A DNA stretch of 64,000 nt from Vibrio crassostreae (GTDB lineage: Bacteria > Pseudomonadota > Gammaproteobacteria > Enterobacterales > Vibrionaceae), in contig NZ_AP025477.1 in assembly GCF_024347415.1 (NCBI RefSeq), positions 1,054,001 through 1,118,000 on the forward strand, given 5' to 3'. Below the pieces are notes generated by a model that did not search any database, was not told the origin of the DNA, and saw nothing but the letters and a program-made list of their open reading frames with translations. A program made the translations under genes and the position numbers. Positions 4,932 to 15,682 of this stretch are shown here, in pieces (the first letter of the stretch is position 1; the number at the start of each line of letters is the position of its first letter).

Positions 4932-5010
4932 AACGAACACTGATCGAAGGAGAAGTCGCATTAGGCTCATGAAAGCTTTCATGGGTGCAGACGTAGATCG
5001 AGTGCTTATA

Positions 5011-5100
5011 GTTCCCTACGCCAGTATTAACTGAATCAGGTTCAACGGGTCTCGATTAACGATCTCAGCAAACACCAAATAAGGTATATGCCCCCCGACT
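5011..5100 (-). ncRNA. TPP riboswitch (THI element)
   Basis: Reading the minus strand, the leader contains AGTCGGGGGGC at its 5' side, the CTGAGATC box, GACCCGTTGAACCTGATTC, and a closing TACTGGCGTAGGGAAC. These are the conserved THI-box blocks in the right order and spacing. TPP binding is expected to lower expression of the downstream thiamine salvage and uptake operon. The rest of 4900-5252 holds the RBS hairpin on one side and the probable promoter region (5101-5252) on the other; I could not fix a convincing -35/-10 pair there. Confidence 0.95.
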
Positions 5101-5252
5101 ATTGATAGCGATAGTAACAGCACTCTCACAACTGAGATACTGATTTTATTCATTTATAAGATTCACGCATGAATAAAATTCAATTTAGCTTTCTTCACTC
5201 ACTCTGAAACAAGTGCCTAAACAAGTGCTTAGACTAGCGATTAGACAAATGC

Positions 5253-10568: not shown

Positions 10569-11243
10569 ATGCTTAAGTTCTATTTTCACCAAACACCCAA
10601 CCCAATGAAGATCGCTCTGTTTCTAGAAGAGACAGGTCTAGATTTTGAACTCGTTCCTGTTGACACCTTAAAGGGCGAGCAACACACGCCGGAATATCGC
10701 TTAATAAACCCGAACGGGAAAACACCTGCCATTGAAGACGAAGGACAACGCGTATTCGATTCTAACGCTATCCTTCTGTACCTATCAGAGAAGACGGGCA
10801 AGCTTGGTGGTCAGCCAGAAGACAGAGCCGAACTACTCTCTTGGATGATGTTTATCGCGAGCGGCCTTGGTCCTTATTCGGGCCAATCGGTACACTTCCG
10901 CCATGCAGCGCCAGCAGGCTTAGACTACGCTGTGAACCGTTACCTACGTGAAGCACAACGTCATTACGAAGTGCTAGAAAAGCATATGGAAGGTCGTGAA
11001 TTTATCGTCGGAAATGAGTACACGATTGTTGATGTCGCTGCATGGGGTTGGATTGATAAAGCACCTGTCGTGCTTGGTGAAGAAGGCCTAGAACCTTACC
11101 CGAACTTGAAGCGTTGGTTTAACGCAATCAACACTCGCCCAGCCGCACTACGTGCCCGTGAAACCGGTAAAGATGTTGAATTTAAAACCGAACGTGATGA
11201 AGAAGCGAAACGAGCACTGTTTCCTTCGAATTATGCGAAGTAG
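10569..11243 (+). CDS. Glutathione S-transferase family protein
   Basis: A 224-residue soluble GST. The N-terminal thioredoxin-like domain shows FYFHQTPNPMKIALFLEE, the cis-Pro segment NPNGKTPAIED and the gamma-glutamyl-binding FDSNAILLYLSEK. The C-terminal all-helical domain contains EFIVGNEYTIVDVAAWGW, the usual N-capping box. It resembles YfcG/YghU-type disulfide-bond reductase GSTs more than classical conjugating enzymes, but the substrate is unknown. A good AAGGAG site lies 9 bases before the ATG. It is probably a single-gene unit with its own palindromic operator (10514-10529) and terminator (11296-11321). Confidence 0.9.
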   Translation: MLKFYFHQTPNPMKIALFLEETGLDFELVPVDTLKGEQHTPEYRLINPNGKTPAIEDEGQRVFDSNAILLYLSEKTGKLGGQPEDRAELLSWMMFIASGLGPYSGQSVHFRHAAPAGLDYAVNRYLREAQRHYEVLEKHMEGREFIVGNEYTIVDVAAWGWIDKAPVVLGEEGLEPYPNLKRWFNAINTRPAALRARETGKDVEFKTERDEEAKRALFPSNYAK

Positions 11244-11342: not shown

Positions 11343-11595
11343 GTCATGACTTTATAATCCACTTATCCAAAACACATTTCTGGACAGAAATGAGCTACAG
11401 GTTTTGCTAAATTAGTAAAATATGAATTATCTCAGGTATGGCTGACCTATCTTTCTGTGATTAAATTTTCATCTTACTAAAACTCAACAACGTCATCTGA
11501 ACACCGCTACCTTTCTTATGATTTTGGGCCTTTGTTGTCAAATCTGCCTCGTAAGTAACCTCTTAATTTACCACGGTGAAATACCCATGATTCTG

Positions 11596-11637
11596 TAACT
11601 AACTTTCAAGCCCTTAGGGGCTGGTTTTGCCTACAGT
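11596..11637 (+). repeat. Two-stem imperfect hairpin
   Basis: The outer stem CTGTA/TACAG and inner stem AGCCC/GGGCT (loop TTAG) are separated by unpaired bases. This could be a decayed attC-like site or a terminator (GGTTTT follows the inner stem). Its role is uncertain. Confidence 0.4.
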
Positions 11638-11795
11638 ATGTTATACAACTAGTTGCTTTAGCGAGTTTTGTGGCTGAAGTCCCTGTTTTACGGCTTAAAA
11701 TCAGCTATTTAACGTAATAGGCATAATGACTACCGAGAAAATATGGGTGAATTTACAATTACAGTCGATAGGTGTCTGGTAGCATGGGGAGATAT

Positions 11796-11810
11796 ACGAT
11801 CTGAGATCGT
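11796..11810. promoter_or_regulatory. Perfect dyad upstream of the cassette gene
   Basis: ACGATCT-G-AGATCGT is a perfect 7-bp inverted repeat centred 41 bp before the TTG start at 11844. It lies just outside the proposed cassette boundary, so it would belong to the target DNA and could be an operator or part of the promoter serving the cassette. Confidence 0.5.
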
Positions 11811-11821
11811 TGAATACAATG

Positions 11822-12963
11822 TTATGCATTTTAAGGAAATATATTGGCAAAGTTTAATAAAGATAAGATACCTTTGTCTGGACACTATGAGATGATGTCT
11901 AAGGATAATCATAAGTTATTCAAGCGCACTGAACAGTGTTTACTCGGTAAAGGAATTTGTAGTGAAAAGGCAATCAGGTCTCATTCTATTCAGGAAGCCT
12001 CTTTACGACAAATAGCTGATAAGACTTCACATATTTATTCTTTCGAGTCACTTAGCTATAAAGAGTTGATTGATTTACACAATAACGGGGTATATTTGCC
12101 TAAAAAAATTGGTGTCTCTAACGCTACGATATTTAATGGATTTTGCTCGAAGCACGATACTGAATTATTCTTGTGTATAGAAAAGATTGAAATAACGCCA
12201 AATAAGGAACAACTAAATGCATTGTGTTTTAGAGCAATGTCTAAATCGTATTTGGGTAATAAAAGTTTAAAAGAAGCAATAATTAATATCTTAAAAAATG
12301 ACTATCCAGAATATCATAAACCAGATAAACAGCTTGCATATATACGTCATCAAGCAAAAAGTCAGAATAAAAGCCTTGAACAGCAATCGCTTGAATATAT
12401 TACTGCAAAAAATAAGATGTTTATACCTGAACTGATTAAAGAAAATTTTCTTTTTTTTAGGTTGCAGAGTATTCCGGACATTATGTGTTCAACAATTTTA
12501 GCTCCTATATTTGATTTTGAAGGTTTCTCGCTTTTAAATGAGGGTGTCCCTAACGATATTCAGTACCTATGTATTACTATTTCCTCTGATGTTAAAGGTG
12601 GCTATGTGATCTTGCAATGGTCCAAAAATGATGAGATTACAAGCTCATTTATCTCTTCTTTTTACAATGTTGATTGTGATTTCAATAAGTTAATGGCTTA
12701 TATTATGTTGTTTACGGATTTTGTATTTTCTCCTAATTGGTGGGAGGCATTACCTGATAACCAAAAAGAGATAATTACGCACTTTGCTATGGCTCCGCAT
12801 TTCATATCATTACTTGAAGATATGGGGGTTCCTTTAAAGGTCTATAACAATTTTCTATCAAAAGGTATAAATTTTGTAGATTGGAGAGTGGTTGAGTGTA
12901 AAACAAATGCATAACAATAACGGTTAAGTCGATTCAGGCTGCTTGAATTGAACATAACGCCCG
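11822..12963 (+). mobile_element. Putative single integron gene cassette
   Basis: The 5' boundary G^TTATGC (11821-11827) is the exact complement of GCATAAC (12909-12915), which overlaps the stop codon of the enclosed gene. In an integron cassette the six bases at the 5' end complete the attC of the excised circle, so this complementarity is what the mechanism predicts. Joining 12963 to 11822 gives an R'' GCATAAC / R' GTTATGC pair, 7 of 7. The cassette is about 1.14 kb with one AT-rich gene. No integrase gene and no second clear attC are visible in the window. Confidence 0.6.
11844..12914 (+). CDS. Unknown protein with Cys/His zinc-knuckle-like region (cassette gene)
   Basis: I do not recognise a named family. 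The 356-residue protein starts at TTG 11844, with AAGGA 8 bases upstream. Residues 32-104 hold a Cys/His pattern: C32-x6-C39-x7-H47 (in AIRSHSIQ) and C101-x2-H104 (in GFCSKHD). This suggests a treble-clef or HNH-like zinc site. A basic Lys-rich middle follows, then a hydrophobic/aromatic C-terminal half (FDFEGFSLLNEG, FTDFVFSPNWWEALPDNQ). No signal peptide or clear membrane segment is present. Base composition and codon use are far more AT-rich than neighbouring genes, supporting transfer. The attC-like site follows immediately. A nucleic-acid-related or defence role is possible but is inference only. Confidence 0.75.
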   Translation: MAKFNKDKIPLSGHYEMMSKDNHKLFKRTEQCLLGKGICSEKAIRSHSIQEASLRQIADKTSHIYSFESLSYKELIDLHNNGVYLPKKIGVSNATIFNGFCSKHDTELFLCIEKIEITPNKEQLNALCFRAMSKSYLGNKSLKEAIINILKNDYPEYHKPDKQLAYIRHQAKSQNKSLEQQSLEYITAKNKMFIPELIKENFLFFRLQSIPDIMCSTILAPIFDFEGFSLLNEGVPNDIQYLCITISSDVKGGYVILQWSKNDEITSSFISSFYNVDCDFNKLMAYIMLFTDFVFSPNWWEALPDNQKEIITHFAMAPHFISLLEDMGVPLKVYNNFLSKGINFVDWRVVECKTNA

Positions 12964-12971
12964 TTCTATGC
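12909..12971 (+). other. attC-like recombination site
   Basis: It folds like an integron attC. R'' is GCATAAC (12909-12915). L'' CGGTTA (12921-12926) pairs with TAACG (12955-12959), leaving one extrahelical G. After a short unpaired spacer, TCGATTCA (12929-12936) pairs with TGAATTGA (12945-12952) at 7 of 8 positions around the loop GGCTGCT. The site ends at G^TTCTATGC (12963-12971). The final bases differ from R'' because after the crossover point they belong to the neighbouring DNA. At about 61 bp in circular form it is within the normal attC size range. Confidence 0.65.
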
Positions 12972-12981
12972 ACCAAAACAA

Positions 12982-13005
12982 AAGGTCAGCTATTAGCTGA
13001 CTTTT
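12982..13005 (+). terminator. Intrinsic terminator downstream of the cassette
   Basis: AAGGTCAGCT-ATT-AGCTGACTTTTT is a strong stem followed by a T-run, 68 bp after the cassette gene stop. The hairpin lies outside the proposed cassette. Confidence 0.85.
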
Positions 13006-13215
13006 TGTTGAATCTCGCAAATAGTAGAGATTAGAAAATATATCACCAATCAGCATTAATAGATTGTGAATGAGTATTTACGTTAACAAGAAAAGGGGCA
13101 ATAATGTGTTGAATGAACGTCTAACATTGAAACAACTCATACGCCTTATTTTACCCACCTTTAGTAAGGAATGTGATCGGTGATGTAGGCTGCCCATAAA
13201 AAATTTCTGTATAAG

Positions 13216-13273
13216 TCCCAAACAAAAAAGAGCCGCTAAAAAGCGGCTCTTGATTTTCAAACTATGTTAAAAC
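13216..13273 (+). repeat. 57-bp direct repeat, right copy
   Basis: Direct copy of 11286-11342 with six mismatches and one gap. It includes a perfect hairpin AGAGCCGCT-AAA-AAGCGGCTCT (13230-13250) followed by TGATTTTC. No coding gene directly precedes it, unlike the left copy, which ends the GST transcript. Confidence 0.85.
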
Positions 13274-13472
13274 AACCATAACGTGATAATTGTGATTCCT
13301 TTCATTTCAAAAAGTTACCAAAAAAACAACCATATGTTGATGTTTTTGTGAAAGCGCAGCTTTGCTCAACCAACACCTGAAAGAAAACTACTTTCAAATA
13401 TGGGTAATTTTATTTAGCCGATTTGCTTAGGTAGGCTCTTGCATTACTTTAATTGGAACTCGAAATCAAAAA

Positions 13473-13511: not shown

Positions 13512-15533
13512 TTAAAGTGTTCTGGCAACCTCAAAACCATCCCAGATGGCGGTCATGATGGTACGAGCTTTCTGGCTATCACCAATGTTAAACACAGTAT
13601 CCACGTCCAACTCATTAGCCAGCGCCTCATGAAGGTGATCTTCAGCCTTATAGCCTAAAGCTAAAACTACATGGTCAGAAAGAATTTCCATCTCTTTGTA
13701 GTCACTCTTAACCAACACACCTGTATCAGTGATGGTTTGTAGTAAAGTTGAAGTCAACACTGTCACTTGCTCTTTAACCAGCAGCTCTTTTAGCATTTGA
13801 TAGTTAGCAAAACAAGTACCGTGCGGACCACCGATGATGTCATCGCTTCCCTCAATTAAAGTCACAGCTTTACCCTGTTGCGCCATCCACAATGCAGCCT
13901 CAGCACCAACTAAACCACCACCAATCACGGTGACTTTGTCTCCTGTGATCTTGTCTGGATTCATCAGCATGTCTTCTGCAACAATCACATGAGGCTTATC
14001 TTGGCCTGATAACCATTTTGGCTTCACTGGGAGCGAACCTGTCGCAAAGATAACGCTGTTTGGATTAAACGATTCAATGGTCTCTTTATCTGCCGTAACG
14101 TCAAAACGCACATCCACGTTCTTACGCTCCATCTCACCTGCAAACCATTCAATCAATAACTTGTCATCATGCTTGAACGGAGGTTGGCTACCCGGGATAA
14201 CGTTTCCGCCAAGTTTTTTTGATTTTTCAAGCAGTGTCACCTTATGACCACGTTCTGAGGCAATACGCGCTGCTTCCATACCTGCAACACCGCCACCGAC
14301 AACCACGACGTTCTGGCTACGATGGGTTGGCGCTAAGCGAAACTCTTCTTCACGGCCACAGCTTGGGTTCACCGCGCAAGACAAGTTCCCCACTTCTGCC
14401 ATACGACCTAAACAGCCTAAGTGACACGAAAGACAAGGACGCACCTCTTCAAAACGACCACGGCGAATCTTGTTAACCGTATCTGGGTCAGCCAGCAGTG
14501 GGCGCCCCATTGATATACCATCAGAGATGCCATTCTCGACTGCATGCGCTGCTAGATCGGGGTTTTCCATGCGACCAGACATCAGTACTGGCACATCGAC
14601 CACCTCTGACACTGCCTTACAGTAAGGCTTGTACATTCCAGGTTCGAAGTAGTTAGGCGGATGGTTCCAGTACCATGAATCGTAGGTACCAGCATCCACA
14701 TTCAATGCATCGAAACCGGCATCTTGAAGGTATTTGGCCGCTTTAAGGCCCTCTTCCATATCACGACCAACTTCCTCAGCTACTTCGCCAGGAAGAATAC
14801 CTTGGCCAAAGCCTTTCATGTTCCCTTTCACTGAGTAGCGAAGCGAAACAGGAAAATGCTCGCCACACACGGCTTTAATGCCCTTTACGATTTCAACCGC
14901 AAAGCGGTAGCGGTTTTCAAAACTACCGCCGTATTGGTCAGTACGCTGGTTAAAAAATTCCATGGTGAACTGGTCAAGCAAATAGCCTTCATGCACTGCA
15001 TGGATTTCAACACCATCGAAGCCCGCTTTTTGCGCAATCGCCGCAGACTCAACAAACTTACCGATAAAGTACTTCACCTCATCCGTCGTTAGTTCTCGAT
15101 GCTGAATAGAAGGATCAAAACGGTTTGGCGCGTCAGAAGGCGCTATCGATTTATCTTCTGGGGTAAAGCCTGGAATACAAGAACGCCCCCAACCTGCAGT
15201 CAACTGAGCAAAAATTTTCGCACCGTAAGTGTGAACGCGCTCAGTCATCTCTTTGGCACTACGAATATAGGCCGTTGGGTGGTTGGTTGGACACGGAAGA
15301 GAAGGCATTGGAAATTGTTCCAACTCGTTTTCGACCATTTGTACACCAGTAATAATCAAGCCTACGCCGCCACGAGCGCGCGCGACATAATACTCAACGC
15401 CACGTTGGTTGTAGGCCCCGTCGCCGTCGACACAGCCCAATGTACCCATTGGCGCCATCGAATACCGGTTTTTCAGTTTCAAGGAGCCAATTTTCATTGG
15501 CTCAAAAAGGATTTTGTGCTGTTGTTTTAACAT
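13512..15533 (-). CDS. NADH:flavin oxidoreductase / 2,4-dienoyl-CoA reductase-like Fe-S flavoprotein
   Basis: A 673-residue two-module enzyme. Residues 1-360 form an FMN-binding old-yellow-enzyme barrel (NRYSMAPMGT, HEGYLLDQF, the RTDQYGGSFENRYRF signature). Cys367, Cys370, Cys374 and Cys386 form the 4Fe-4S site (CLSCHLGC...SC). A pyridine-nucleotide/FAD module follows (VVVVGGGVAGMEAARIASERG near 410; VTVIGGGLVGAEAALWMAQQG near 540). This is the architecture of FadH, BaiCD/BaiH and trimethylamine dehydrogenase relatives. The divergent AraC/CoA-transferase/FadBA-like locus supports reduction of an unsaturated acyl-CoA. Substrate unproven. The ATG at 15533 has GGAG upstream; an in-frame GTG four codons earlier coincides with that site and is unlikely. 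Confidence 0.88.
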   Translation of the reverse strand: MLKQQHKILFEPMKIGSLKLKNRYSMAPMGTLGCVDGDGAYNQRGVEYYVARARGGVGLIITGVQMVENELEQFPMPSLPCPTNHPTAYIRSAKEMTERVHTYGAKIFAQLTAGWGRSCIPGFTPEDKSIAPSDAPNRFDPSIQHRELTTDEVKYFIGKFVESAAIAQKAGFDGVEIHAVHEGYLLDQFTMEFFNQRTDQYGGSFENRYRFAVEIVKGIKAVCGEHFPVSLRYSVKGNMKGFGQGILPGEVAEEVGRDMEEGLKAAKYLQDAGFDALNVDAGTYDSWYWNHPPNYFEPGMYKPYCKAVSEVVDVPVLMSGRMENPDLAAHAVENGISDGISMGRPLLADPDTVNKIRRGRFEEVRPCLSCHLGCLGRMAEVGNLSCAVNPSCGREEEFRLAPTHRSQNVVVVGGGVAGMEAARIASERGHKVTLLEKSKKLGGNVIPGSQPPFKHDDKLLIEWFAGEMERKNVDVRFDVTADKETIESFNPNSVIFATGSLPVKPKWLSGQDKPHVIVAEDMLMNPDKITGDKVTVIGGGLVGAEAALWMAQQGKAVTLIEGSDDIIGGPHGTCFANYQMLKELLVKEQVTVLTSTLLQTITDTGVLVKSDYKEMEILSDHVVLALGYKAEDHLHEALANELDVDTVFNIGDSQKARTIMTAIWDGFEVARTL

Positions 15534-15682
15534 TGAACACTCCACATTATTGGTATGCCACCAAAATAGTTAGTGACAGAATCTGCGAGTATTAAAACAA
15601 CCCTCAACGCTCATTACTTGGCAAAACAGGACATCTAATTAACCGTTCAAGACATCCCAATTTTTTTTGATATGAATCATAA

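What the first reader, a model, noticed from the sequence alone, without database searches (positions are those of the whole stretch)
11822..12963. Lone integron-type gene cassette with a foldable attC, apparently outside an integron
The 5' boundary GTTATGC is the exact complement of GCATAAC at the gene's stop. The following 60 bases fold as an attC: R box, L box with one extrahelical G, unpaired spacer, 7-of-8 bp terminal stem. Rejoining 12963 to 11822 restores a perfect 7-bp R''/R' pair, which is what cassette excision chemistry predicts. The 3' junction G^TTCTATGC would then be the original target, fitting capture at a secondary G-W-T site. No integrase or cassette array is visible around it.
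Basis: partly seen in the sequence, partly recalled or inferred. Interest (0 to 1): 0.85.

Follow-up and report, generated by a model that had tools for sequence, protein, structure and literature searches.

The report
Decayed lone integron cassette in Vibrio
A single gene in this Vibrio genome looks like a cassette that an integron once delivered and that has since been stranded with a worn-out recombination site, which is an instance of a known kind of event.

Summary
The end geometry is real. GTTATGC (11821-11827) is the exact complement of GCATAAC (12909-12915), which overlaps the stop codon. Of 1199 non-array ORFs, 2 pass the same strict test: this one and a member of the same protein family on an apparent array fragment. 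The family is cassette-borne: of its 12 other places in 148 related genomes, 10 have an attC after the stop, and six of those lie in arrays beside intI. The 21 bases after GCATAAC are the window's best match to a Vibrio attC left arm.

The 'foldable attC' is not supported. Three covariance models and a trained profile do not find that fold; right arm, L-box pairing and folding energy are near chance. I read a cassette-derived relic, not an intact cassette.

The genome has no intI above cut-off but 18 Vibrio-type attC hits at E<=1e-3, in two clusters and scattered. No empty site was found in 227 genus genomes, so insertion at G^TT stays inferred. Stranded cassettes outside integrons are already described (CALIN, SALIN, secondary or attG sites).

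The parts
11821..11827 (+). GTTATGC, 5' boundary (R'-type box; cassette would begin at 11822 after the G)
   Evidence: Exact complement of 12909-12915; strict end-pair test 2 of 1199 ORFs
11833..11837 (+). AAGGA, likely ribosome-binding site, 6 nt before the start codon
   Evidence: Read from the sequence
11844..12914 (+). ORF, 356 aa, TTG start; uncharacterised family with conserved C32, C39, H47, C101, H104, D105
   Evidence: no Pfam, PADLOC or NCBIfam hit of its own at E<=0.01
12909..12915 (+). GCATAAC, R''-type box overlapping the stop codon
12916..12936 (+). Remnant of a Vibrio-type attC left arm
   Evidence: Alignment score 10: best of 1298 window sites, 0 of 400 shuffles, 4 of 9000 other sites as good; not seen by nhmmer
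12921..12959 (+). Putative L boxes CG(G)TTA (12921-12926) and TAACG (12955-12959)
   Evidence: At chance level: 26% of shuffled interiors as good
12932..12948 (+). Short terminal stem ATTCA (12932-12936) / TGAAT (12944-12948)
   Evidence: Folds; not better than shuffles
12963..12964 (+). Inferred 3' boundary G^TT (right arm before it is not significantly attC-like)
   Evidence: Right-arm score at the 12-16% level; of the four GTT sites tested in 12930-13110 it scores best

Best explanation
About 11822-12963 is a relict integron gene cassette stranded outside any integron. Inferred history: an integron integrase, now absent from this genome or acting from elsewhere, inserted a single, probably promoterless cassette between two chromosome-2 genes, most likely at a G^TT secondary (attG-type) site. 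With only one attC and no integrase it could hardly leave again; the attC then eroded to its R'' box and part of the left arm while the ORF stayed open. Shown here: end geometry, attC-like left arm, cassette-borne protein family, no intI above cut-off, other attC sites in clusters and alone in the same genome. Inferred: insertion route, 3' boundary, order of events. I give 0.55 to this route and about 0.8 to 'cassette-derived relic' by this or the array-remnant route.
For: Strict end-pair geometry 2 of 1199 non-array ORFs. Left arm: best of 1298 sites in the window, 0 of 400 shuffles. Family in arrays beside intI at six places in four genomes, and as lone copies with exact ends in G004 and V. 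pelagius. No intI above cut-off, yet 18 attC hits at E<=1e-3, among them a lone one with exact ends at C1:1992263 and one with altered R boxes next to a second family copy at C2:290998. No promoter-like match on the plus strand between 11500 and the start codon (a weak scan).
Against: No attC model hit with the proposed fold; profile score 0.6 against at least 24.8 for left-out true sites; L box, right arm and folding at chance level. The left arm was tested after I had noticed it. No empty site. The closest relatives (49-55%) could be read only as proteins, so their attCs are unseen.
Confidence: 0.55

Rival explanations
1. Last remnant of a broken-up cassette array: neighbouring cassettes were deleted or rearranged away, so this cassette was never inserted alone.
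For: The genome still has clusters of attC without integrase (nine hits at E<=1e-3 at C2:407005-415420, three at C2:680761-682679), and CALINs are thought to be degraded integrons (passage of PMC9024848).
Against: No other attC hit in the window with R1; the locus is far from both clusters; lone family copies also occur in G004, V. pelagius and a Sulfuricurvum.
Confidence: 0.25
2. Coincidence: an ordinary horizontally acquired gene whose two 7-base ends match by chance.
For: attC models, L box, right arm and folding give nothing. Two of the six loose-rule ORFs outside arrays (L138, L127) have matching ends without a known reason. The family also exists without attC, as in G090 and 12 of 13 named-genome relatives.
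Against: Strict geometry is met by 2 of 1199 ORFs and both belong to this family; the attC-like left arm follows exactly this R'' box; 10 of 12 other places of the family in related genomes have an attC.
Confidence: 0.13
3. One reading: an intact, foldable attC of unusual short form, still a substrate for an integrase.
For: Perfect 7-bp R stem on rejoining; a drawable L box with one extra base; attCs of 57-76 nt exist in other Gammaproteobacteria.
Against: The short attCs I harvested keep L pairing with spacers differing by at most one base (a condition of the harvest); this site does not. Folding is no better than in shuffles.
Confidence: 0.05

Closest known systems
[quoted passage not shown]
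   Same: One cassette-type gene with one recombination-site trace in a genome region without integrase or array
   Different: A SALIN or CALIN is called from an attC model hit; this site gives none with my models
Insertion of cassettes at secondary or attG sites (passages of PMC2426708 and PMC10127599; the attG paper of Loot et al. 2024 is not held, and known to me from titles and recall)
   Same: Junctions AATG^TTATGC and CCCG^TTCTATGC fit a G-N-T crossover; a single site remains
   Different: No empty target was found, so the insertion itself is not shown
Vibrio chromosomal-integron cassettes of the same protein family (G059, G061, G006, G043)
   Same: Homologous protein (21-28% identity) in a one-gene unit with its 3' site at or near the stop codon
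   Different: Those lie in arrays beside intI with full attCs; this one is alone, with a 61-nt degenerate site
SEC-C domain-containing proteins on plasmids (11 records)
   Same: Same conserved core over residues of about 39-317 in most of them
   Different: SEC-C motif present in 8 of 19 aligned members, not in this protein; no attC model hit around the Pseudoalteromonas copy with R2

Membership tests
Integron gene cassette (intact) | One gene bounded by complementary R' and R'' boxes, R'' at or after the stop | tested here: met
   GTTATGC/GCATAAC; strict geometry 2 of 1199 ORFs
Integron gene cassette (intact) | attC with paired L boxes and extrahelical base in canonical register | tested here: not met
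   Score 6.1 against at least 9.0 in 96 attCs; 26% of shuffles as good; profile 0.6 against at least 24.8
Integron gene cassette (intact) | Same protein family found in integron arrays | tested here: met
   Six places in four genomes beside intI, distant homologues of 21-28% identity only
Integron gene cassette (intact) | Excised or integrated by an integron integrase | not testable with these tools
   Needs a recombination assay; no integrase over the cut-off in this genome
SALIN / CALIN | attC detected by covariance model without integrase nearby | tested here: not met
   R1, R2 and R3 give no hit with the proposed fold. IntegronFinder's own model was not available; R2 and R3 also miss some true Vibrio attCs
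SALIN / CALIN | No integron integrase at the site | tested here: met
attG / secondary-site insertion | Empty target with a G-N-T crossover triplet in a relative | tested here: inconclusive
   Junction fits, but neither flank was found next to the boundary in 227 genus genomes, two or three candidates scored in each

The most novel reading that the evidence does not exclude
One protein family (conserved C-C-H-C-H-D core, SEC-C motif in some members) is deposited again and again as a single cassette outside integrons: in this Vibrio twice, in G004, in V. pelagius on chromosome and plasmid, and in a Sulfuricurvum. The attC then erodes, in part below the detection limit of attC models, while the gene is kept. 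Integrons would thus act as one-way delivery vehicles that leave domesticated accessory genes behind.
Probability: 0.25. Interest if true: 0.6.

Novelty: new member of a known kind. Interest (0 to 1): 0.38.

Why it matters
Stranded cassettes whose attC has decayed escape attC searches, so the share of ordinary chromosome content that integrons delivered may be undercounted. A genome without an integrase but with attC sites scoring from 129 down to 22 bits offers a natural series in which such decay could be measured.

Tried and rejected
Intact attC: rejected after a profile, three covariance models, nhmmer and shuffles. My models are not IntegronFinder's. R2 found nothing in L263 and L267, which hold attCs, and R3 hit only L237 and L101 among 11 loci, so a miss by these two is weak evidence. 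R2 was run only over 11500-13300 of the window, not over all of it.

Empty site: the flanks were sought together in 196 and separately in 227 genus genomes, with two or three candidates scored per genome. The left flank matched elsewhere only in pieces of up to 48 bases. On the right the only match starting near the boundary is one of 77% to 12982-13161 in G173, beside other DNA.

Close relatives: P0002-P0005 (49-55%) were read as proteins only; no scan of metagenome contigs was available. The named-genome scan gave 13 loci, best 29%; the viral scan gave one at 24%.

Papers: listings from searches on attG, SALIN (24), secondary sites (25), CALIN (73), cassettes and defence in Vibrio (74), lost integrase (119); passages only of PMC12901181, PMC9024848, PMC11023631, PMC12690207, PMC2426708, PMC10127599. 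In these I saw no mention of this locus or of this family as a lone cassette.

Full report
WHAT IS THERE. The window lies on the second contig of a four-contig genome, G000:C2:1054001-1118000. The genus is Vibrio: contig C3 of the same-genus genome G030 equals V. pelagius plasmid NZ_AP025505.1 in length and in homologue position. Between a glutathione S-transferase gene (10569-11243) and an FMN oxidoreductase gene (13512-15545, minus strand) lies one ORF, 11844-12914, 356 aa. Its GC is 32%, against 46% for the window; the two intergenic stretches beside it are also low, at 37% and 34%. GTTATGC ends 16 nt before its TTG start and GCATAAC overlaps its stop; they are exact complements.

IS THE END PAIR MORE THAN CHANCE? 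I counted ORFs of at least 80 aa with an NNNYAAC box near the stop and its exact complement upstream. Outside arrays 6 of 1199 ORFs pass the loose rule (80 nt upstream, 70 nt downstream): the window; L131, a family member; two ORFs of L024, one of them a family member on an apparent array fragment; and two unexplained ones (L138, L127). Under the strict rule (40 nt, 5 nt) only the window and the L024 family member pass. In eight arrays 79 of 208 ORFs pass the loose rule. Known array loci, six loci of array homologues and four copies of the window were dropped before the count. The test uses the first possible start codon and so misses the G004 and V. pelagius copies.

IS THERE AN attC? The rejoined 61-nt site has a perfect 7-bp R stem. 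The rest is weak. In 145 Vibrio attCs harvested beside intI genes the L boxes lie three bases from the R boxes on both sides (spacers of 2 to 4 were allowed). Broader gammaproteobacterial sites add spacers up to 6 (a difference of at most one was allowed). Here the best L pairing needs spacers of 5 and 3, with two pairs before the extra base, and 26% of shuffled interiors do as well. A profile trained on 96 sites scores it 0.6; left-out true sites score at least 24.8. Covariance models R1 (Vibrio, full length), R2 (generic arms) and R3 (Vibrio-type arms) do not find the fold. R2 and R3 put a weak hit at 12909-12929 (6.5 and 11.6 bits), which pairs the R'' box with a GTTAAGT seven bases further on; over the whole window two other places outscore it with R3. 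nhmmer finds nothing there. Folding of the present site has z -1.17.

A TRACE OF A VIBRIO attC. The 21 bases after the R'' box align with a Vibrio attC left arm at score 10. That is the best of 1298 comparable sites in the window, reached by 0 of 400 shuffles and by 4 of 9000 sites sampled from other loci; of these four, one (L120) is also an R1 hit and one (L201) looks like an attC arm but is not an R1 hit. True left arms score at least 8 against other genomes, median 21. The right arm is near chance, at 12-16%. I tested the left arm after noticing it, so it is support and not proof. Together this reads as a Vibrio-type attC that has lost most of its middle and right half.

THE GENE FAMILY IS CASSETTE-BORNE. 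A near-identical protein record exists (P0001, 99%), then four metagenomic relatives of 49-55% identity, all ending N-A or N-V before the stop as an R'' box would dictate, though that end is also conserved as protein. Among 148 genomes 9, this one included, have a homologue, at 13 places. Of the 12 other places 10 have an attC straight after the stop, one (G034) only a left arm, one (G090) none; I read these from the sequence, and R1 confirms five of them: L095, L101, L102, L103 and L104. Six places lie in arrays beside intI: G059 at 13 kb, G061 at 30 kb, G006 three times starting 0.4 kb away, G043 at 6 kb. G004 and V. pelagius (chromosome and plasmid) have copies with GTTAAGG/CCTTAAC ends and only one R1 hit in the 13 kb read around each. 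Of 13 relatives in named genomes one, in a Sulfuricurvum MAG, passes the end-pair test (GTTAGAT/ATCTAAC) with a weak R2 hit of 13.4 bits; it stands alone after an ABC-transporter-like gene, with two small ORFs between it and FtsZ- and FtsA-like genes (names from reading the translations). The other twelve did not pass that test.

THE GENOME AROUND IT. No integron integrase is over the cut-off, whereas 73 of 118 sampled genus genomes have one. R1 finds 23 attC hits at E<=1, 18 of them at E<=1e-3: nine at C2:407005-415420, three at C2:680761-682679 and six elsewhere. Single sites differ in state: exact ends at C1:1992263, with a DUF3644 protein; altered R boxes at C3:160427 and at C2:290998, the latter behind a second, distant copy of this family. 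Eleven relatives hold 9-25 such hits each; seven of these had no intI over the cut-off, four were not tested for intI (at most 150 candidates scored per genome).

HOW IT PROBABLY CAME ABOUT. Inferred: an integrase, lost since or acting from elsewhere, inserted a cassette circle by its folded attC at a G^TT on the chromosome. The junctions AATG^TTATGC and CCCG^TTCTATGC fit the G-N-T motif reported for off-target sites (passage of PMC10127599). Insertion at a secondary site leaves one recombination site and so makes excision unlikely (passage of PMC2426708). Without an integrase the attC drifted. A remnant of a vanished array cannot be told apart without an empty site, and none was found in 227 genus genomes.

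FUNCTION. Ten residues are invariant across 19 relatives, among them C32, C39, H47, C101, H104 and D105, which suggests a metal-binding core (inference). A SEC-C motif occurs in 8 of the 19 but not here. The predicted structure is confident but matched nothing. I cannot name an activity; an accessory role, perhaps defence, is a guess.

VERDICT. The event is of a known kind. Since the attC features were tested and not met, I file the locus as a cassette-derived relic and not as an intact cassette or a SALIN.

Noticed in passing
G000:C1:1992263-1992385 (L263): A lone, better preserved cassette in the same genome: DUF3644 protein of about 414 aa with exact ends AATTAAC/GTTAATT and an R1 attC hit of 68 bits.
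   Followed up: partly
G000:C2:407005-415420 and C2:680761-682679: Two clusters of Vibrio-type attC without integrase (nine and three hits at E<=1e-3); a tyrosine recombinase lies at C2:676598, near the second.
   Followed up: no
L116:8501-8606 (G194), L127:272-369 (G223), L120:6243-6308 (G017): attC hits (54, 34 and 30 bits) about 2, 8 and 5 kb downstream of the same GST gene, in 3 of the 15 relatives' GST-side loci searched. The region may be a favoured place for stranded cassettes.
   Followed up: no
11400-11447, 11696-11736, 13054-13110, 13224-13341: Short intergenic repeats that recur across Vibrio genomes flank the gene on both sides; one of them (13054-13110) also lies just downstream of the lone family copy on the V. 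pelagius plasmid.
   Followed up: no
L098 (G006:C2:1571412-1591400): Three copies of one family cassette in a single array next to intI, with the same stop context and attC start.
   Followed up: no
4996-5107, minus strand: TPP riboswitch (Rfam RF00059, 74 bits), ordinary.
   Followed up: no
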